Shown: positions 6,323 through 42,239 of the stretch, one piece after another | How the letters are laid out: each line of letters begins with the position of its first letter | Numbering within the stretch: position 1 is the stretch's first letter | Assembly (NCBI RefSeq): GCF_025642745.1 | Contig: NZ_JANZKP010000007.1 | Span: 1-64,000 of the forward strand | Origin: Cellulomonas sp. RIT-PI-Y | GTDB taxonomy: Bacteria > Actinomycetota > Actinomycetes > Actinomycetales > Cellulomonadaceae | DNA length: 64,000 bases | Direction of reading: 5' to 3' | Program-made: the position numbers and the translations under genes | The notes under the pieces: generated by a model | The model's input: only the letters and a program-made list of their open reading frames with translations | Database searches by the model: none | What the model was told of the DNA's origin: nothing

Positions 6323-6880
6323 TCAGCGGCTCCTCTCGGTCGTGGTGTCGGACGGTTCCAGGACGGCGCGCAGCTGGCCGAGGGCCCGGGAGGCGGTGGA
6401 CTTCACCGTGCCGACCGAGATGCCCAGGTCGTCGGCGACCTCGCGTTCGGACAGGCCGACGAAGTGCCGCAGGACGACGACCCTGCGCTGGCGGGCCGAG
6501 AGCAGGGCGAGCGCCCGGGTGAGCTGGTCGCGATCGTGACTGCGGGCCGCGTCGCGGTCGTCACCGTGGTCGGGGAGCGTGGTCGGGTCGCTCAGCACCT
6601 CGCGCCGCCGTCGGCGCCAGGTGTCGATCCGCAGGTTCGCCAGGGTGCGGCGGGCGTAGGCCAGCGGGTCGCCCTGGCGGGCCTGCGACCACGCGAGGTA
6701 GGTGCGGACCAGTGCCTGCTGCACCAGCTCGTCGGCCTGATGGACGTCACCGCACAACAGCCACGCGGTCCGGGCGAGCGCGGGACTCGCCTCGGTCATG
6801 AAACGGGTGAACTCGGTGTCCCGATCGGTCGGGGGCCCGGTGTCGACCAGGAGCTCGGTCCCGGGTGGTGCGTCGTCCAT
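6323..6880 (-). CDS. ECF RNA polymerase sigma factor (SigE family)
   Basis: 185 residues with the two core sigma domains. Region 2 includes ALARTAWLLCGD and HQADELVQQALVRTYLAW; region 4 is a helix-turn-helix with LSEREVADDLGISVGTVKS. Length is right for the SigE family of actinobacterial ECF factors. The ATG at 6880 was chosen over an upstream in-frame ATG because the conserved domain begins shortly after it. The downstream membrane protein starts one base past the stop, suggesting a sigma/partner operon. Confidence 0.85.
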   Translation of the reverse strand: MDDAPPGTELLVDTGPPTDRDTEFTRFMTEASPALARTAWLLCGDVHQADELVQQALVRTYLAWSQARQGDPLAYARRTLANLRIDTWRRRRREVLSDPTTLPDHGDDRDAARSHDRDQLTRALALLSARQRRVVVLRHFVGLSEREVADDLGISVGTVKSTASRALGQLRAVLEPSDTTTERSR

Positions 6881-33871: not shown

Positions 33872-33979
33872 TCACGCTGGTGGTGTGGCGCGGTCGCACT
33901 GGTGGACTACGTGCCGATAATGGACGTTGGCCCGCGAGTCGCTCTTGCACTTGCCCGTTTCCGGTCCCATGATGGTCAT
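33872..33979 (-). pseudogene. 5' part of a phage gene split by integration
   Basis: ATG at 33979 has GGAGG 7 bases upstream. The frame encodes 17 residues beginning MTIMGPETG, then six residues (NVHYRH) encoded by the att repeat. In the prophage it runs into chromosomal DNA and stops after 12 more codons at 33872. In the circular phage the same frame continues at 41974 into the 3' part (41651-41974), giving a 130-residue protein. Reading frames match exactly across the 18-bp (six-codon) core. Confidence 0.75.
33910..33937 (+). other. attL, left phage-chromosome junction
   Basis: XerC-type arm CGTGCCGATAA, centre TGGACG, then a degenerate right arm TTGGCCCGCGA. Compared with attR, the first 18 bases are shared and the XerD side differs, as expected if chromosomal left arm and phage right arm are joined here. 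Confidence 0.75.
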
Positions 33980-34019
33980 CAGGTGGCCTCCACTTCCTGT
34001 CTAGGTGGTGGTCGCTAGA

Positions 34020-34068
34020 CGCCCCCGGTAGCCGTTGGCGCGGCCCGGGGGCGCAGCTCTATCTGCGC
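34020..34068. other. Tandem hairpins between ssb and the split gene
   Basis: Stem CGCCCCCGG/CCGGGGGCG (34020-34028 and 34045-34053) followed by GCGCAG-CTCTAT-CTGCGC (34051-34068). In phage orientation they lie just downstream of ssb, where they could attenuate transcription into the structural operon. Confidence 0.5.
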
Positions 34069-34086: not shown

Positions 34087-34527
34087 TCAGAACGGCGGAG
34101 CGTCCGGCGAGGCCGGAGCAGCGTGCGCGGCGACCGACGCCGACGCGGGGGAGTCGCCGGGCTCAGAGCGGAGCACCTTAGCGATGCGGAGCTGAGCGGA
34201 TCGGGTGGACGCCGCGATCTCGCTGGCGGTCACCTCGACCCGGGACCGCTTGTCACCCTCCGGCGTCTCCCAGTTCGCCGTCCGCGTGCGACCCAGCACG
34301 ATCACACGCGTGCCCTTGACGATGTTCGACTGAATAACATTCTCCGTCGAATCGCCCCAGAGCGTCACCGGCCAGAACGTGGCGTCATCCTCGACCCACT
34401 CGCCGGAATTGCGGTCCCGGTGGCCCTGGTTTTCTGCGACGGTCAGCCGAACGAAACGGCGACCGGAGGGCGTGACGCCCATTTCCGGGGCAGCTACCAC
34501 ATTGCCCACAACGGTGATCGCACTCAT
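34087..34527 (-). CDS. ssb: Phage single-stranded DNA-binding protein (pV functional analogue)
   Basis: 146 residues with one OB-fold domain: MSAITVVGNVVAAPEM, RFVRLTVAENQ, FWPVTLWGD and GTRVIVLGRTRTANWE match bacterial-type SSB. The C-terminal tail is short, Ala/Pro/Ser-rich and ends DAPPF, resembling the acidic DIPF-type tip for protein contacts. In a filamentous phage it would coat the single-stranded genome before assembly. Upstream lie a CGGCGCGCCAACGCCG element and TAGACAGG, both also found before the rep gene. Confidence 0.9.
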   Translation of the reverse strand: MSAITVVGNVVAAPEMGVTPSGRRFVRLTVAENQGHRDRNSGEWVEDDATFWPVTLWGDSTENVIQSNIVKGTRVIVLGRTRTANWETPEGDKRSRVEVTASEIAASTRSAQLRIAKVLRSEPGDSPASASVAAHAAPASPDAPPF

Positions 34528-34537
34528 TGCGAAAGTC

Positions 34538-34569
34538 CCTGTCTATGGTGAATCGGCGTTGGCGCGCCG
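34538..34569 (-). repeat. Upstream element shared by ssb and rep (copy 1)
   Basis: Read on the minus strand: CGGCGCGCCAACGCCG (34554-34569), eight bases, then TAGACAGG (34538-34545), about ten bases before the ssb ATG. The first block is an imperfect palindrome with CGGCG/CGCCG arms. The same two blocks occur at 36806-36829 before rep. Probably an operator or translational control site. Confidence 0.6.
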
Positions 34570-34681
34570 ACGAACACGAGAACCATCTACCGCGAACGAC
34601 ACGCGTGTCAACGTGCGACACTACGCCGAACGGGTGAACTATCGAACAGATGTCCGATTTGACCGAGCGAAGTTCCTGCCG

Positions 34682-35056
34682 ATGATGAAGGACATGAGCG
34701 CTGCCGCACCACGACGATCCCCGCACCACGGACTCACCGGGTCAGAAGTCCTAGAACTACAAGACGCCGAATCGACGCCCGAGCGACTGGCAATGACGCC
34801 CCTCGACCGATTCCGCGACGTGGCAGCCGAATACGCACACCGCACCGTGAACCTCCTCATCACCAACGACCTCATGGGCGCACTCCGCGCCGCGCAGATC
34901 GCCACCGCCGCCCTCAACTCCGCCCAGGCCGAAGAGGACTACCGCGAACGCGCCCGCCAGATGCGCGAGCAGTGGGCACGCGAAGGCGTATTCGTCCCGA
35001 AGGGACGCCGCCGCGCGATCACCCCACCGACACCGATCACCTCCGGCAGGAGATGA
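34682..35056 (+). CDS. Phage protein of unknown function, divergent from ssb
   Basis: 124 residues from the ATG at 34682; an in-frame GTG at 34613 would add 23. Helical and charged, with a central MTPLDRFRDVAAEYAHRTV segment and a basic tail (PKGRRRA). Strong third-position GC bias supports coding. It is the only plus-strand gene in the prophage and is divergent from ssb, the place where CTX-type phages keep their repressor RstR. No helix-turn-helix is obvious, so the regulatory role is a guess. Confidence 0.55.
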   Translation: MMKDMSAAAPRRSPHHGLTGSEVLELQDAESTPERLAMTPLDRFRDVAAEYAHRTVNLLITNDLMGALRAAQIATAALNSAQAEEDYRERARQMREQWAREGVFVPKGRRRAITPPTPITSGRR

Positions 35057-35772: not shown

Positions 35773-36792
35773 CTAGCAGTCGGGCCGGTCCGGCACCGAC
35801 GCTCGACCCCAGCCCTCGACCGCCGAGCGCACCGCCGCCCAGCCCTCACCCTCGCGCATGCCCCAGATCGGCAGCGCCGCGACGACCAGCGTCCAGTGCT
35901 GCTGAGCGGCGAGCACGTCGCGCATGCGGTCGCCCCACGTCCAGGACGCGGCCCAAGTGCGGAACGTCGGCATCGACACCAGCGCGCGAGCAGCGGGGGA
36001 GACCAGTTCACCGGTCCGCGTATCGATCACCGAGCGCTCAGCGACCTGCCGCCCGGTTTCGTCGACGAACGGCACCCGCACCACCTTGTGCGCACGCAGC
36101 TTCGGCCGGACCCATCGTTCAGCCGACCAGGGCACGACCTTGCGGTCGTTGGACGACTTCGCGACGTACTTCGCGACGTACGTCGCGTGCCCGGGCTGCA
36201 CCGCCTGGACGTCCACCGAGTGCCCGAACCCGTGCCGGATCGCCAGACGGCGGAAGTCGTGCACGGTGATCGCCAGCGGCGCGCCGTCCCGGCGACGCAT
36301 CAGCACGTGGAAGTGCAGCGCACCACGGCGCTGGACCTCCACCGCGCGGAAGTAGACCAAACCCTGACGGCGATGCCGCTTGCCAGCGGCGTCGTAGGTC
36401 ACCTGATCCGCGCCCACGAACCGCGACAACTCTTGCAGGAACCGGGACCACCGCCGCGACGCGTCCGCGTTCCACTTCCCGAGGTCCACACCGCCCTCCG
36501 GCGTGCACCGGCACCGATTGCCCCACTGGTCATGGTGAACCGCCCGACCGGGTGAAGTCAGGGTGACGAACAGCCCGTCACGTCCTAGCCGCAACCCTGA
36601 CCCGGCCACACGGGCCACACGCTGGCGGTACTTCGCCGCACACGGCCCGCACCGGTCCGAGCGGGACGTGCCGCACGCAATCCGCCGCTCCTCGCCGCAG
36701 ACCCCGCAAACGAGCCGCAGCGGAGCCTCGCAGCCCGGCCCGGACGGCCCGTCCCACAGCCCGACAACATGCCACTCATGAGCACACGACAC
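35773..36792 (-). CDS. Phage rolling-circle replication initiator (HUH endonuclease, pII analogue)
   Basis: 339 residues. An N-terminal Cys-rich region (C21, C29, C32, C40, C48, C51) is a probable zinc finger, as in actinobacterial replication initiators. RCR motif 1 is LFVTLTSPG (74-82), the HUH motif is ALHFHVLM (H160, H162), and the catalytic motif is YVAKYVAKS with Y205 and Y209. It would nick the phage plus strand to start replication. The GTG at 36792 has AAGGGG upstream, and the shared ssb/rep upstream element precedes it. Confidence 0.88.
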   Translation of the reverse strand: MSCAHEWHVVGLWDGPSGPGCEAPLRLVCGVCGEERRIACGTSRSDRCGPCAAKYRQRVARVAGSGLRLGRDGLFVTLTSPGRAVHHDQWGNRCRCTPEGGVDLGKWNADASRRWSRFLQELSRFVGADQVTYDAAGKRHRRQGLVYFRAVEVQRRGALHFHVLMRRRDGAPLAITVHDFRRLAIRHGFGHSVDVQAVQPGHATYVAKYVAKSSNDRKVVPWSAERWVRPKLRAHKVVRVPFVDETGRQVAERSVIDTRTGELVSPAARALVSMPTFRTWAASWTWGDRMRDVLAAQQHWTLVVAALPIWGMREGEGWAAVRSAVEGWGRASVPDRPDC

Positions 36793-36858: not shown

Positions 36859-37920
36859 CTACGCGGTCGCGGCTCCGTCGCCGTCGACCGGGTGCAGCTC
36901 GAACCTGCGCCGACGCCCGCCCGTGGCCGTGATCGTCTCCACCACGCCAGGCGGCAGCCGGTCCGGGTCGGGCGGGCAGGTGCACGACGGCGCGGACCGA
37001 CGCCCGCCGCACGACAGGCACATGCCGCCCTCCGCAGCCGCGCCGAGCTGAGTCACCGCCGCCGCCGTGTCGTAGACCTGCTGCGCGATGTGCCCAGGAC
37101 GCCAGAACGTCTGCCGGGCCACCGGCACCAGGCGCTCACGACGACCGACCGTGAACCGGTCGAACTCCGACGCGTCGAACATCGTCCAGCGGAACAACCG
37201 AGCCTGAGCCCACACGCCCCGCTTCTCCACCGCGAACCGGCCCCGGCACAGCACCACACCACGGGTCACCGACCGGATACGCACATCCGCGTTGCCGTAG
37301 TCGGGCGTCGTCCAGAGCAGCCGCGCGTCCCGCCGCCTGAGCTGCTGCACCAGGTTTTCCACCTGGACCGGGAGCGACATGGATGACCGCGACGACGCGA
37401 CACCGGTCACCTCGTCCATCAGCACGTCCGTGTGCTCGACCGCGAGCAACTGCACGAACGACCGCAGCCGGTCGTAGTACGGGCTGACCCGCAACGGGTC
37501 ATCCACATCACGCAGCTCGACCGTCGACAGCACGCGCCGCCAGCCCGTGACGATGCCGCCGTCAGCGAGCTCGGTCACGACCCGCCCCTGCTCGGCCGTC
37601 TCCCACTGCGTAGGGCAGTCGCAGACCGCCGTGGGCTCGGTCGACAGCAGACGCCGGGCCGCGCAGTCCGTCCCGTGAGTGTGCAGGTGGTCCGGGTTCG
37701 CGCAGTCCCACCGCTGGCCCGCCAGGGTCGGGAGGACCGCGTACACCGCAGCGAGCGTCTTCCCTCCGCCGTTCCCGCCGACGAACGCGCAGATCGGTGT
37801 CCCAGCGATGACCGCGATGGCGTCGAGCGACTTGCGGCCGTCCACCCCAGCACGCCACACCCGCCAGCGATCCCGCCACCCGGTCGGCCGCTCGCACGGG
37901 AAGTCCGGCAGCTCCTTCAC
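36859..37920 (-). CDS. Zot/pI-type phage assembly ATPase
   Basis: 353 residues. Walker A FVGGNGGGKT (46-55) and Walker B DVLMDEV (D169, E170) place it in the FtsK-like Zot family that extrudes filamentous phage through the inner membrane. A Cys cluster (CLSCGG...CTC) near the C-terminus may bind zinc. Unlike Gram-negative pI proteins, it shows no clear transmembrane helix; the membrane protein encoded by the overlapping upstream gene may anchor it. GTG start overlaps that gene's TGA. Confidence 0.85.
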   Translation of the reverse strand: MKELPDFPCERPTGWRDRWRVWRAGVDGRKSLDAIAVIAGTPICAFVGGNGGGKTLAAVYAVLPTLAGQRWDCANPDHLHTHGTDCAARRLLSTEPTAVCDCPTQWETAEQGRVVTELADGGIVTGWRRVLSTVELRDVDDPLRVSPYYDRLRSFVQLLAVEHTDVLMDEVTGVASSRSSMSLPVQVENLVQQLRRRDARLLWTTPDYGNADVRIRSVTRGVVLCRGRFAVEKRGVWAQARLFRWTMFDASEFDRFTVGRRERLVPVARQTFWRPGHIAQQVYDTAAAVTQLGAAAEGGMCLSCGGRRSAPSCTCPPDPDRLPPGVVETITATGGRRRRFELHPVDGDGAATA

Positions 37921-38416: not shown

Positions 38417-40369
38417 TCACGCGGTCCCCGTGGAGCCCGGGGCGTACGTCTTCCACGCCCACCACGCGAACGGCGCGAGGGTCATGACCCACATCGCGAT
38501 GCTGAACAGAGGCCGGTAGTCACGCAGGAGCCGCGACACCGGGTCCGACCAGGTGCACGAGTCCAGCAACGGCTGGTCGTGCCCGATCACGAACGTCAAC
38601 GGGAGGCTCAGCTGCAAGCACAGCGAGCCGCCCTGCGGGGGCGTCAGAACCCCAACGATCGACCCGAGCTGAGGCAGCGGCGTCTTGGTCTGCAACGTCG
38701 TCGTGATCTGCGTGATCTTGGCCTGCGTCTTAACCGGCACGAATGCCTCCTGCAACGCACACACGCTCGCCTTGTAGTAGTACCAGGGGTTGAATGCGGA
38801 GGTCCAGGAGAACGGGGGAGGGCAGCTATTGCTCTGCGTTCCCCCTCCGGGCTGCGGACTAGTGCCGGTGCCGGGGGTGGTGTCGATCTTGCCGTCAGGG
38901 TCCGCGTAGTCGATGGCCTCGCCTGCGCCGTTCGTCACACCCGGGTCGAAGGTCGGCCGGTACACGTTGCACTCCGCGAGGTCGACCACAGCGCCGCCGT
39001 AGGTGCACCGGTAGGTCTCGGTCTTGGCCGGATCGTTGAACCAGTCCGTGCAGAGCGTCGGATTGTCGAAGCACGAGTACCGGGCACCGGTTACTGCGTC
39101 GAGCCGTTCCAGCAGCAGCGTGCAGCCACCGCCGACGCACTGCGGGTACTGCGTGACGAAGTCCGTGAGCTGCTGATCGGCTTCCCAGGTGTAGATCGTC
39201 TCCCCGGCCGTCAGACCCTCCGTGATCTGCTCGACCAGCACCGACGTAACGACCGCCGACGCGTCGCACTGCGCCTGCGGGATCGCGGGCCACTGTTCAT
39301 CGGCTTCGGTGAACGCGGCCGAGCGGGTGACCCCGCCCGGCGTCCCGGTCGAGCACTTCCAGGTGGTCTGCCACCATCGCTGCGGGTTCGCGAGCGTCCC
39401 GGGTGTGTAGCTCGGGTGCCCCTCTGGGACCCAGCGCATCGTGCCGACCGGAGTCTGAGTCCAGGTGGAGCTGGACGAAACGAGCCACTGAACACCGGCG
39501 AACACCCAGTCCGACCGGTACGAATTGCTAGGCGCGTCGATAGTCGCTGACGCGACGCCGCTGGCCCCACAGCTCGCCGGAGCCGTCGGGTAGAGCACCT
39601 TCGCGCTCACCGTGTTCGTCGGGTCCTTCGGGTCCTGAAAGAGCGCCGACAACTGGGGCTGCGGAGCCGCTGTGGTGGTCGAGCTGCCACGGGAGATGCA
39701 CTGCCCGCTATAGGCCATCTGAACCGCGACCTGCTGCCCCACCGCCTGAGTCCAGGTCGTCGCGTAAGTCATCGACGTGTCGACCCGGTAGCTGATCGTC
39801 GCGGACTGCCAGTAGTTGTACGAAAACGTCGTGTTCGCCTGAAACGTCGTGGAGGAGACCCCGCCCTGCCAACCGCCCTGTAGCCCGCTGAAGCCCGCGT
39901 TCACCTCGTAGCCGGTCGCAGGACCCAGCGCACAATCCGACGTGGCCAGCGCCGTCCCGAGGTCACACCAGAAGTTCCCCGTAGTCGGCAGGCCCATCGC
40001 GGTCGAGACGCCTGTGCCGAGGTCGAGCGCCATGTTGAGCCCGGTCACCGCAGAGAAAGCGAAGTTGCCCGCGCTCATCCCGCCCGCGCCCAGCTTGGAC
40101 GTGCCGGTCGAACTACCCGACGACGAAGCGACCGTGCCCGCGCCCGTGTTGCTGATGACCCGATTCGGGTTGCTGTTGAACGTGGCGTTCCACTGATTCG
40201 GCGTGAGCGTGTTGCTCTGCGTCGTCTGAGCAGGCATGTAACTCAGCGGGGGAGCGGGCACCGTCGTGTACGCCATCGCGGACGGCCCAGACGGATCGAG
40301 GACCACCAGGCCCAGACCGACGAGAACGACGGCGACGACAGCGGCAACGCGTCGCAGATGCACCAGCAC
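38417..40369 (-). CDS. pIII-like phage adsorption/spike protein
   Basis: 650 residues. A signal peptide (hydrophobic run 9-24, likely cleavage after SAMA near 33) leads to a large Ser/Thr/Gly-rich exported domain with many cysteines, a Pro/Gly linker (PGTGTSPQPGGGTQSN, near 530) and a C-terminal membrane helix (SIAMWVMTLAPFAWWAW, about 622-640). This is the architecture of pIII, which binds the host and caps the particle. GTG at 40369 has AAAGGAG 8 bases upstream. The receptor is unknown. Confidence 0.75.
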   Translation of the reverse strand: MLVHLRRVAAVVAVVLVGLGLVVLDPSGPSAMAYTTVPAPPLSYMPAQTTQSNTLTPNQWNATFNSNPNRVISNTGAGTVASSSGSSTGTSKLGAGGMSAGNFAFSAVTGLNMALDLGTGVSTAMGLPTTGNFWCDLGTALATSDCALGPATGYEVNAGFSGLQGGWQGGVSSTTFQANTTFSYNYWQSATISYRVDTSMTYATTWTQAVGQQVAVQMAYSGQCISRGSSTTTAAPQPQLSALFQDPKDPTNTVSAKVLYPTAPASCGASGVASATIDAPSNSYRSDWVFAGVQWLVSSSSTWTQTPVGTMRWVPEGHPSYTPGTLANPQRWWQTTWKCSTGTPGGVTRSAAFTEADEQWPAIPQAQCDASAVVTSVLVEQITEGLTAGETIYTWEADQQLTDFVTQYPQCVGGGCTLLLERLDAVTGARYSCFDNPTLCTDWFNDPAKTETYRCTYGGAVVDLAECNVYRPTFDPGVTNGAGEAIDYADPDGKIDTTPGTGTSPQPGGGTQSNSCPPPFSWTSAFNPWYYYKASVCALQEAFVPVKTQAKITQITTTLQTKTPLPQLGSIVGVLTPPQGGSLCLQLSLPLTFVIGHDQPLLDSCTWSDPVSRLLRDYRPLFSIAMWVMTLAPFAWWAWKTYAPGSTGTA

Positions 40370-40449: not shown

Positions 40450-40650
40450 TCAGGAACCGATCTGGTTCGAGGCCTTCTTCGCGGCCTTGTTCGCGATGAA
40501 GATCGACCGGATCACCCAGGCCAGGCCCAGGATCACGGCGACGCCGCCGACGATGGCCGGGACCGCGACGTTCAGCTCGCCGCTGGCGGACGAGAACACC
40601 GAGTCGACGCCGGAACCGGGCTCGACCGCGGCGGCCAGAAGGTTGAACAT
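40450..40650 (-). CDS. pVIII-like major coat protein
   Basis: 66 residues: a short N-terminal segment, a region with Glu/Asp (EPGSGVDSVFSSASGE), one membrane helix (AIVGGVAVILGLAWVI) and a basic end (ANKAAKKASNQIGS). This is the pVIII layout in which the basic tail faces DNA. GAGGT lies 6 bases before the ATG. A cleavable signal is weak, so processing is uncertain. Confidence 0.75.
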   Translation of the reverse strand: MFNLLAAAVEPGSGVDSVFSSASGELNVAVPAIVGGVAVILGLAWVIRSIFIANKAAKKASNQIGS

Positions 40651-40688: not shown

Positions 40689-40811
40689 TCACCCGTGCGC
40701 GCCGGACCACTCGCGCACCTTGTACGCGAGGGCCACGGCAGTACCGACCGCGACAGCGACGGCAGTTCCAGTGACCATCTGGCCGAACAACTCGACCCCG
40801 GTCAGATCCAT
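40689..40811 (-). CDS. pIX-like tiny phage membrane protein (40 aa)
   Basis: One membrane helix (MVTGTAVAVAVGTAVALAY) and a short charged tail. GGAGGG lies 7 bases before the ATG. The start overlaps the end of the 33-codon gene. Position immediately upstream of the coat gene corresponds to gene IX of Ff phages. Confidence 0.6.
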   Translation of the reverse strand: MDLTGVELFGQMVTGTAVAVAVGTAVALAYKVREWSGAHG

Positions 40812-40919: not shown

Positions 40920-41231
40920 TCACCGCGTCAGCAGCCGGACGGCGATCACTGCGAGCAGCAGCACCGACACCACGCCCACCGTCGCGAACCCGAGCGCCAG
41001 CGCCATCGCGTCCGGGCTCAGCGACACGAAGCACGGCGACTCCTGCGTCCCGCAGACGGCGGCGGGCACGTCGTCCGAAGGCGACTGCGAGGCCTCCGGC
41101 GACGGCTCCGGCGACGAAGATTCGACCGGGACCGGTGAGAGCGTGGATTCCGGTTCCGACGACGCCGACGAGTCCGGCGAGACCGAGGCCGACCAGGCCC
41201 AGCCCGGCAACGAAGCGGGTCCCCATGTCAC
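40920..41231 (-). CDS. Phage membrane protein with Ser/Pro-rich stalk
   Basis: 103 residues. An N-terminal Ser/Pro/Glu-rich region (VESSSPEPSPEASQSPSDD) and two cysteines precede one membrane helix (LALGFATVGVVSVLLLAVI) and a short basic end. The GTG start overlaps the stop of the upstream 79-codon gene (GTGA), which supports this frame. A second frame over the same DNA also looks protein-like in its first half (signal-like MGTRFVAGLGLVGLGLAG). Confidence 0.55.
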   Translation of the reverse strand: MTWGPASLPGWAWSASVSPDSSASSEPESTLSPVPVESSSPEPSPEASQSPSDDVPAAVCGTQESPCFVSLSPDAMALALGFATVGVVSVLLLAVIAVRLLTR

Positions 41232-41467
41232 GCGTCACCCCCGACACGTGCGACCGCGAACCGGCCAGCGGCCTCGGCCCGGCCACCACCACGGCCGTGC
41301 CACAGCTCCCGACCGTGCACCGTGCACGCGGAATCCACGAACAGCGCCGGATCGATGAACCGAACAGCCACAGGGGACAGGCACCCGGTGCGGTAGCAGC
41401 GCCCGTCACGAGTCGCCGCCGCCGTCTGCTCCCGATGCTCAGCCAATGCCGACACCCGCGCCGTCAC
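41228..41467 (-). CDS. Small phage protein, unknown
   Basis: 79 residues. Basic, with CYRTGC and CTVHG cysteine pairs that might bind a metal. Both ends overlap neighbours by GTGA, placing it firmly in the phage operon. No family recognised. Confidence 0.5.
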   Translation of the reverse strand: MTARVSALAEHREQTAAATRDGRCYRTGCLSPVAVRFIDPALFVDSACTVHGRELWHGRGGGRAEAAGRFAVARVGGDA

Positions 41468-41658
41468 AGGACGCCCCTGAGCACGAGCCGGTAAATGACC
41501 GACACACGGGGACTCAGCACCTCATCCAGAGCGTGACCGCCGCCAAGCTCCAGCAGCTCCCGAGCGGCCTCGGCCGTCAGGTTGAACTCACCGGCGATCT
41601 GCCGAAGTGTCGCGGCGTCGGACGGCTCCGCGATGACCGTCGATTCGTGCTCACGCAT
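41464..41658 (-). CDS. Small phage protein with possible helix-turn-helix
   Basis: 64 residues. ATLRQIAGEFNLTAEAARELL has helix-turn-helix spacing. Its stop overlaps the next gene by GTGA, and its start lies inside the end of the split gene. It might regulate the operon; weak evidence. Confidence 0.5.
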   Translation of the reverse strand: MREHESTVIAEPSDAATLRQIAGEFNLTAEAARELLELGGGHALDEVLSPRVSVIYRLVLRGVL

Positions 41659-41992
41659 GCTGCACCGCCGCGACTCCGGCGTCGGTCAGCAGGTACGGCA
41701 CCGGCTCGTCCCACGCACGAGCGACCACGGCGGCGTCCGCCAGACGGACCCGCAGCAGCACGAGCACCGCATCCAGGAACGCCAGGCCGCCAGGCTCGAT
41801 CACGCACCCGAGCGCCACACCGCGCCCGGACGCCGCGTCGTCGCGGTCCGTCTCGACCGCCGACACGGCCAGCAGAACGGCCCGAACATCGTCGCCGCCC
41901 GTGATCGCCTGGAAATTGCCGATCAGCCGGTCGCAATAGGCCCCGGCGTCGAACCAGGAATGCCGATCCGTGCAGTGCCGATAATGGACGTT
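41651..41992 (-). pseudogene. 3' part of a phage gene split by integration
   Basis: The frame is open from the attR core down to 41651. Residues encoded inside the phage begin CTDRHSWFDAGAYCDRLIGNF and end in TDAGVAAVQHA. No ATG, GTG or TTG precedes GTG 41866, so in the prophage at most a 71-residue fragment is made. With the 5' part at 33979-33911 it forms a continuous 130-codon gene in circular phage DNA. Cys/His residues near the junction (K-C-K, H-Y-R-H-C) could bind metal. Function unknown. Confidence 0.75.
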
Positions 41993-42001
41993 ATGTCAGA
42001 C
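41974..42001 (+). other. attR and regenerated dif-like Xer recombination site
   Basis: XerC-type arm AGTGCCGATAA, centre TGGACG, XerD-type arm TTATGTCAGAC. Against E. coli dif, each 11-base arm matches at 8 positions, including ATAA and TTATGT flanking the 6-base centre. The left side comes from the phage and the right arm from the chromosome, so a complete site is kept after integration. Confidence 0.75.
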
Positions 42002-42239
42002 TGTCGCCTGCGCGCTGCTTTGATCAGTACCCCTGAGGCACCCAGGTTCGTTGAGCCACCCCTTCTCCATGCGCACGTGAGCGGCTTCGACCAAGGCAGA
42101 CCATGGGGATCGCCGCCCTGCTGCCTCGACGCCCGGCTGCGGTGGGCCGCGAGCAGGCGCCGGTGCCGTAGCTCTGCCGTGCGGGTGTTTCCCCGATAGG
42201 CGCCGACCTTCCGACCTCACGCGTGACACCGTCTCGCGT

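What the first reader, a model, noticed from the sequence alone, without database searches (positions are those of the whole stretch)
41651..41992. The phage att core lies inside a gene that is rebuilt only in the circular phage
Seen: the ORF entering attR from the phage side (codons through WFDAGAYC) has no start in the prophage. At attL an ATG at 33979 with GGAGG 7 bases before it encodes 17 codons that enter the 18-bp repeat in frame (six codons, NVHYRH). Joining the ends gives one 130-codon gene, exactly in frame, starting downstream of ssb and ending inside the next phage gene. Inference: integration breaks this gene and uncouples the structural genes from the ssb promoter, so integration state would switch the phage operon off and excision would restore it, a recombination-based genetic switch.
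Basis: partly seen in the sequence, partly recalled or inferred. Interest (0 to 1): 0.9.

Follow-up and report, generated by a model that had tools for sequence, protein, structure and literature searches.

The report
Phage gene split by integration site
In a group of filamentous phages of actinobacteria, the site used to insert into the host chromosome lies inside the start of the first gene of the virus-particle operon, so inserting cuts that gene off from its start signal and only the circular phage has it whole.

Summary
The 18-bp repeat is the XerC arm plus spacer of the host dif site, so this is a dif-integrated filamentous prophage of Cellulomonas. On the phage strand an SD and ATG after ssb open a frame that enters the core; the frame leaving the core at the other end has no start with an SD and stops inside the next gene. 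At this locus alone that is not beyond chance (shuffles: 88% for an open frame, 29% with SD and stop overlap). But 7 of 7 same-orientation dif prophages from four genera share the layout, the seventh as a prospective test, and one natural 127-aa database protein carries leader, core and body uninterrupted. Different phages read the core in three different frames, so openness is kept, not residues. Integration thus beheads the first gene of the structural operon and parts it from ssb. That this works as a genetic switch is plausible but untested. XacF1 ORF12 is a precedent with another geometry. New variant of a known kind.

The parts
33911..33928 (+). att core copy at attL: host XerC arm + spacer + 1 nt; the phage side continues TGGCCCGCGAG (from the last repeat base), not an XerD arm
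   Evidence: exact 18-bp repeat; arms listed
41975..42002 (+). attR: phage XerC arm GTGCCGATAAT, spacer GGACGT, host XerD arm TATGTCAGACT = a complete 28-bp dif site
   Evidence: dif pattern found exactly once in each of 43 of 81 genomes of the genus and not at all in the other 38; reversed-pattern control 0 of 81
33929..33979 (-). 5' piece of the split gene: ATG and 16 further codons (MTIMGPETGKCKSDSRA), running in frame into the core
33987..33991 (-). Shine-Dalgarno-like GGAGG, 7 nt before the ATG
   Evidence: an SD motif at 7 of 7 such starts
41651..41992 (-). core and 3' piece of the split gene (113 codons and stop), without an SD-bearing start in the prophage
   Evidence: homologues P0001-P0003
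41464..41658 (-). next ORF of the operon (64 aa); its ATG overlaps the split gene's stop by 8 nt
41228..41467 (-). third ORF of the structural operon (79 aa), overlaps the previous stop
40920..41231 (-). operon ORF, 103 aa, membrane-like C terminus (by eye)
40689..40811 (-). operon ORF, 40 aa, hydrophobic (by eye)
40450..40650 (-). putative major coat protein (MFNLLAAAVEP..., about 66 aa)
   Evidence: frame; look-alike in L006; name is inference
38417..40369 (-). large secreted/adsorption-like protein, 650 aa
   Evidence: no family hit; role inferred from place and size
36859..37920 (-). pI/Zot-type morphogenesis ATPase
   Evidence: PHROG head morphogenesis E 2.2e-33, Zot-like 5e-6; no Pfam hit; phage B5 relatives
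35773..36792 (-). rolling-circle replication initiator
   Evidence: RepSA 2e-13, REP_ORF2-G2P 4.5e-9
34087..34527 (-). ssb, last gene before the split gene
   Evidence: Pfam SSB 2.6e-21
34022..34068 (-). GC-rich hairpin(s) between ssb and the split gene; packaging-signal candidate (inference)

Best explanation
The window holds a filamentous phage integrated, most likely by the host's XerC/XerD, at the chromosomal dif site. Its attP (XerC arm and spacer, no XerD arm) lies 9-18 codons into the first gene of the structural operon, just after ssb and a hairpin. In the circle, ribosomes start at the SD/ATG, read through the att core in whatever frame is open, finish the gene and pass to the next by overlapping stop and start codons. 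Integration cuts the operon right after that start: the leader stays with ssb at attL, the body lies start-less at attR behind host DNA. SHOWN from sequence: the dif nature of the site, the split, its recurrence in 7 of 7 comparable prophages, SDs only at the upstream starts, and one natural uninterrupted predicted protein. INFERRED: that the host's Xer enzymes do it, that ssb and the structural genes share a transcript in the circle, that the prophage operon is therefore low or off, and that excision restores it, so that recombination state gates virion production.
For: dif: pattern once in each of 43 of 81 genus genomes, control 0; it fits the Frankia alni dif quoted in PMC3025954 (passages). 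No PF00589 recombinase on the window's contig; four elsewhere in the genome. Split frame. Recurrence: window, L006, L007, L073, L074, L075 and L095 as prospective test; starts 9-18 codons before the 17-nt core, totals 130, 130, 121, 100, 117, 33, 81 codons. SD at 7 of 7 upstream starts, 0 of 21 internal ATG/GTG, background 0.14-0.19. Stop in RTGA context in 7 of 7; in 6 of 7 the overlapping start opens an ORF of 29-148 codons, five of them hydrophobic by eye, and in the window the next gene overlaps by its ATG instead. Product of shuffle probabilities for open+SD+RTGA 5.5e-9 (loci related, criteria set after six, length floor of 30 chosen knowing L075). Codon-position GC: pooled 5' pieces 0.52/0.60/0.74, permutation p 0.0054; first 35 codons after the core p 0.0024 (six phages). 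P0006: MTTVPEVRSERTTT-RPLSA-..., leader 13 of 14 identical to L006's attL piece, body 68% identical to its attR piece over 94% of the query. VGJphi-class phages with this kind of attP are described as reversible, with phage production depending on excision (PMC4246890, passages).
Against: At single loci an open frame through the core is common by chance (27-88%). L075's spanning ORF has only 33 codons. L076, also dif-integrated, has its phage genes on the other strand and no such ORF. The upstream neighbour is SSB by Pfam only in the window and L075; L006, L007, L073 and L095 gave no hit, L074 was not tested. Codon-position GC of single 5' pieces is weak (L006 0.62/0.69/0.69, L074 0.50/0.40/0.50). 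In L007 and L073 a host gene reads toward the phage, so the prophage operon may still be transcribed; in L007 and L074 the host frame offers GTG or TTG starts. No sigma-70-like promoter was found before ssb on the phage strand or in the operon's 5' part (weak test in actinobacteria). P0006 is one predicted protein on a 5685-bp contig whose DNA I could not read. Serine recombinases were not searched for. No expression data.
Confidence: 0.62

Rival explanations
1. Passive layout: attP sits in the only loose stretch of a compact genome, between the packaging hairpin and the structural genes. The first gene was extended over it, and its loss in the prophage has no regulatory meaning because phage production follows excision anyway.
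For: The leader is short and differs between most of the phages, the core is read in any frame, and L075's spanning ORF is only 33 codons. Free relatives without a core (L008, L097) keep a plain gene there.
Against: Upstream start with SD, openness through the core and RTGA stop are kept in 7 of 7; the leader of P0006 and L006 is 13 of 14 identical while the bodies are 68% identical.
Confidence: 0.3
2. Two-isoform regulator, as in integration-dependent immunity: the circle makes the long protein, the prophage makes a shorter one from an internal start, and the two differ in activity (lysogeny control, as proposed for XacF1 ORF12).
For: Database homologues are mostly short forms lacking the 5' part (P0001-P0003, P0005, P0007, P0008, P0010-P0012). 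XacF1 with the 5' major portion of ORF12 removed has an unstable integrated state (PMC5666396, passages).
Against: 0 of 21 internal ATG/GTG starts carry an SD; no regulator domain hit in the body (only a sub-threshold DUF7374 match, 17 bits against a cut-off of 27).
Confidence: 0.15
3. Chance: the ORF through the core is noise of a GC-rich genome, and the true gene begins at GTG 41866 or elsewhere in the body.
For: Shuffles give an open frame in 27-88% of cases.
Against: SD and stop pattern in 7 of 7, prospective L095 (null 0.034), natural contiguous P0006, codon-position GC before the core.
Confidence: 0.04

Closest known systems
Inovirus XacF1 ORF12 (and Cf1c) of Xanthomonas
   Same: dif/XerCD-integrated filamentous phage with attP inside an ORF that is split on integration (PMC5666396, PMC4076744; abstracts and passages)
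   Different: There the ORF is a possible HTH-type regulator on the - strand (ORF9, 10 and 13 in the rows seen are +), and by the coordinates given attP (6504-6518) lies about four fifths along ORF12 (6885 to 6427). Here it lies in the first codons of the first structural-operon gene, so start and SD are lost.
VGJphi-class IMEX (Xer-exploiting phages)
   Same: one double-stranded attP with XerC arm and spacer, no XerD arm, no tyrosine recombinase on the contig, complete dif recreated at one end (class features from PMC4246890 passages)
   Different: actinobacterial hosts; attP inside a coding gene; order of strand exchange and excision not tested here
Integration-dependent immunity of mycobacteriophage BPs
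   Same: attP inside a phage gene; integration changes the gene product (PMC4557955 passages)
   Different: BPs loses 33 C-terminal residues of a repressor; here the N terminus is lost from a gene of unknown function
SSV-type archaeal integrase genes split by integration (recalled, no call)
   Same: a viral gene whole only in the circle
   Different: the split gene there is the integrase itself; here host Xer enzymes are the likely recombinases

Membership tests
Filamentous phages (Inoviridae-like) | pI/Zot-type assembly ATPase | tested here: met
   phrog_20922 2.2e-33, phrog_197 5e-6; B5 and Philemon relatives
Filamentous phages (Inoviridae-like) | rolling-circle replication initiator and ssb in a small (about 8 kb) genome | tested here: met
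   element length 8064
Filamentous phages (Inoviridae-like) | filamentous virion | not testable with these tools
   needs microscopy
Xer-exploiting elements, VGJphi class | integration in the chromosomal dif site with XerC arm and spacer shared by both ends | tested here: met
Xer-exploiting elements, VGJphi class | no phage tyrosine recombinase | tested here: met
   four PF00589 matches in the genome, none on contig C67
Xer-exploiting elements, VGJphi class | XerC-first exchange and reversible excision | not testable with these tools
   biochemistry or junction reads needed
XacF1 ORF12 type | attP inside an ORF that is split on integration | tested here: met
XacF1 ORF12 type | split ORF is a regulator-like gene | tested here: inconclusive
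   no PHROG hit, only sub-threshold DUF7374; first gene of the structural operon
Integration-dependent immunity (BPs) | attP inside the repressor gene, prophage product truncated at the C terminus | tested here: not met
   here the 5' end is lost; the gene is not known to be a repressor
Integration-dependent immunity (BPs) | short prophage form is the active repressor | not testable with these tools
   needs expression and immunity assays

The most novel reading that the evidence does not exclude
A lineage of dif-integrating actinobacterial filamentous phages, spread over several genera, uses host Xer recombination as an on/off switch for its virion operon: the dif core is a translated, frame-indifferent linker just after the operon's first start codon, so each integration removes and each excision restores ribosome entry and the link to the ssb transcript. 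No dedicated integrase is needed.
Probability: 0.4. Interest if true: 0.78.

Novelty: new variant of a known kind. Interest (0 to 1): 0.6.

Why it matters
It gives a simple rule for how integrase-less filamentous phages might keep virion genes quiet as prophages. It would explain why start-less fragments of this gene are what databases mostly hold, shows that a host dif sequence can be held open inside a phage gene in any reading frame, and is directly testable with junction PCR and RNA-seq in Cellulomonas strains. It extends a case known from Xanthomonas (XacF1) to actinobacteria, with a different and more switch-like geometry.

Tried and rejected
Rejected: the 18-bp repeat as an ordinary int/att core. 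It is the XerC arm plus spacer of dif. Rejected: the single-locus argument as sufficient; the shuffles showed it is not.

Led nowhere: the 3' piece against phages (no match); related loci of the 3' piece in genome contigs and viral contigs (none); ATPase, 3'-piece and L095 queries in viral contigs (none; one search gave only L057, which has no usable core); profile A2 in the family of G524, no new phage; AlphaFold of P0006, mean pLDDT 50.8, too poor, so no fold search was run; promoter scans; PHROGs and Pfam for the split gene.

Loci scanned for a core: 17, not all with the same mismatch limits (window, L006, L007, L008; L006, L007, L008, L054, L057, L065, L066, L072-L076; L094-L096; L097). 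L066 is a part of L094, so 16 distinct elements. Paired XerC-arm/spacer copies in 8; of these 7 have phage genes in the window's orientation and 7 of 7 show the spanning ORF; L076 has the other orientation and does not. L072 has a complete dif and an XerD-side repeat and was not analysed further. L008, L054, L057, L065, L066/L094, L096, L097 show no usable core (L057 only weak unpaired matches; L065 is a 2605-base piece, L096 a 5478-base contig). Other weak ATPase matches were not fetched as regions: G162, G256, G322, G383, G395, G401, G421, G336, G252, G295, G344, G304, G814.

Full report
What is there. The window lies on contig C67 of a 3.52-Mb genome. One genome of the same genus, G001, has a 7069-bp contig C5 (L008) that appears in the named collection as Cellulomonas alba MW4 contig 5 with the same length (L056), so the genus is taken to be Cellulomonas. 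Between two exact copies of GTGCCGATAATGGACGTT (33911-33928, 41975-41992) lies an 8064-bp element with, on the - strand, a pI/Zot-type ATPase, a rolling-circle Rep, an SSB, a 650-aa secreted-looking protein and small hydrophobic proteins. The nearest annotated phages by the ATPase are Propionibacterium phages B5 and Philemon, 34-37% identical. It is a filamentous prophage.

The repeat is dif. At the right end the repeat continues into host DNA as GTGCCGATAAT-GGACGT-TATGTCAGACT. The pattern CGATAATNNNCNTTATGTCA occurs exactly once in each of 43 of 81 genomes of the genus, not at all in the other 38, and the backwards control never. The Frankia alni dif quoted by Kono et al. is CACGCCGATAATGCACATTATGTCAAGT (PMC3025954, passages). 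The left end has XerC arm and spacer but no XerD arm. No PF00589 recombinase lies on the window's contig; four lie elsewhere in the genome; serine recombinases were not searched for. The element therefore fits the VGJphi class of Xer-exploiting phages, for which a review states that integration is reversible, that excision is initiated by XerC and that phage production depends on excision (PMC4246890, passages). Which recombinase acts here, and in which order, was not tested.

The split frame. Reading the - strand, ssb (34527-34087) is followed by GC-rich hairpins (34068-34022), then GGAGG-7 nt-ATG at 33979, 17 codons, and the core in frame (NVHYRH). At the other end the same frame leaves the core and stops at 41651, overlapping the ATG of the next ORF by 8 nt. 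Total 130 codons, counted on the pieces. In the prophage the frame is closed by TGA 3 codons before the core.

Is it more than chance? Alone, no. With dinucleotide-preserving shuffles of the two flanks, at least one frame with a start within 20 codons, open through the core and 30 or more codons long arises in 88% of cases at this locus, and in 29% with an SD and an RTGA stop. The core is stop-free in all three frames of this strand.

Relatives. Searches with the ATPase (own genome included in each count) found matches in 4 of 81 genomes of the genus, 5 of 221 of the family, 14 of 396 of the order with each of two profiles (several of them weak) and 6 of 394 of the class. Of 16 distinct elements scanned for cores, 8 have paired copies. 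In 7 of the 8 the phage genes have the window's orientation, and all 7 show the same order: an ORF of about 100-150 codons that ends 105-159 nt before the core, a GC-rich inverted repeat (by eye), an SD, a start 9-18 codons before the 17-nt core, an open frame through the core and a stop in RTGA context: window 130, L006 130, L007 121, L073 100, L074 117, L075 33 and L095 81 codons. The upstream ORF is SSB by Pfam in the window and L075, gave no hit in L006, L007, L073 and L095, and was not tested in L074; calling it ssb there rests on place and look. In 6 of 7 the RTG overlapping the stop opens an ORF of 29-148 codons, in L006, L007, L073, L074 and L095 a short hydrophobic one by eye; in the window that GTG is out of frame and the next gene overlaps by its ATG instead. 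L095, from another order, was fetched after the pattern had been noted and met it (null probability 0.034 for open+SD+RTGA). L076 is dif-integrated with genes on the other strand and lacks the feature. SDs: 7 of 7 upstream starts, 0 of 21 internal ATG/GTG within 70 codons in the bodies, background 14-19%. Pooled GC by codon position is coding-like on both sides of the core (first six phages), though weak in single 5' pieces. The product of the shuffle probabilities for open+SD+RTGA is 5.5e-9; the loci are related, the criteria were set after the first six and the 30-codon floor knowing L075, so this is a guide, not a p-value.

A natural whole copy. The body of L006 finds P0006, 127 aa on a 5685-bp contig: MTTVPEVRSERTTT-RPLSA-SSRAADL.... 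Its first 14 residues match L006's attL piece (MTTVPEVRSARTTT, start read as M) in 13 of 14 positions; the rest matches the attR piece at 68% identity. RPLSA is what the core gives in the third frame; the window reads it as NVHYRH, L006 and L007 as (T/P)SIIG. Thus an uninterrupted gene is predicted in a natural sequence, and different phages read through the same recombination core in all three frames: openness is preserved while residues are not. Of the 11 homologues found by three searches, P0006 alone is whole; nine are short forms lacking the 5' part (P0001-P0003, P0005, P0007, P0008, P0010-P0012; P0007 begins with V and may be a fragment), and P0009 also begins internally but has another C-terminal extension. 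That is what one expects where the 5' end is missing, but contig ends and gene-caller choices can give the same picture.

Free relatives. L008 has a 123-bp terminal overlap (circular), no dif core, and an ssb-like end, hairpin and an uninterrupted 61-aa ORF with GTGA overlap. CP041768.1 of Ornithinimicrobium sufpigmenti, listed as a plasmid, is a roughly 9.1-kb phage unit repeated about five times, with an ssb-like ORF (by place) followed by the first structural-side gene and no dif core. In these free forms the ssb place and the structural genes are contiguous on one strand; in the dif prophages integration cuts exactly there.

Function. Integration leaves ssb, SD and start at attL, and a start-less body with the virion operon at attR. 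This would reduce translation of the first gene, and of the overlapping second, and would part the operon from anything transcribing ssb. Whether the operon is silent is unknown: in L007 a same-strand host gene ends at the edge of the core, and in L073 about 42 nt before it (distances recalculated from its reference point 5 nt past the core). Promoter scans were empty on the relevant strand. The split protein has no family assignment and no usable model.

Precedent. In the Xanthomonas inovirus XacF1, attP lies within ORF12, a possible regulator, which is split on integration; removing its 5' major portion makes the integrated state unstable (PMC5666396, abstract and passages; PMC4076744, abstract and passages). 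From the coordinates given there, attP lies about four fifths along that gene. In BPs-type mycobacteriophages attP truncates the repressor's C terminus (PMC4557955, passages). So a phage gene split by att is known. A conserved cut just behind the first start codon of the structural operon was not seen in the listings of six literature searches of the open library, which miss most subscription papers; of the listed papers only six were opened, for passages. Roux et al. 2019 (PMC6813254) was searched for a few terms and the passages did not mention it.

Noticed in passing
window 34022-34068 and the same place in L006, L007, L073, L074, L075, L095, L008: GC-rich inverted repeat between the ssb place and the first structural gene in all eight phages (by eye), with a compensating stem change between the window (CCCCCGG/CCGGGGG) and L006 (CCCCGAG/CTCGGGG); the minimum-energy fold of L006 and L095 pairs it partly otherwise. 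Packaging-signal candidate; no covariation test was run.
   Followed up: partly
CP041768.1 (L097), 46843 bases: A record listed as a plasmid of Ornithinimicrobium sufpigmenti consists of about five copies of a roughly 9.1-kb filamentous phage; probably a free replicative form or a multimer/assembly product.
   Followed up: partly
L008 (Cellulomonas alba MW4 contig 5): 7069-base contig with 123-base terminal overlap: a circular free filamentous phage without a dif core.
   Followed up: partly
window 34379-35056 (+), with look-alikes in L006 and L007: A gene on the opposite strand between rep and ssb, possibly a divergent regulator; no PHROG hit, only a sub-threshold Pfam match to NaeI.
   Followed up: no
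L072 4303-4319 and 12303-12319: A phage at dif whose repeated stretch is part of the spacer plus XerD arm rather than the XerC arm, with phage genes on the other strand: perhaps another Xer class.
   Followed up: no
L076 (G394): A dif-integrated phage in opposite orientation without the spanning gene, but with a similar GC-rich stretch near attR.
   Followed up: partly
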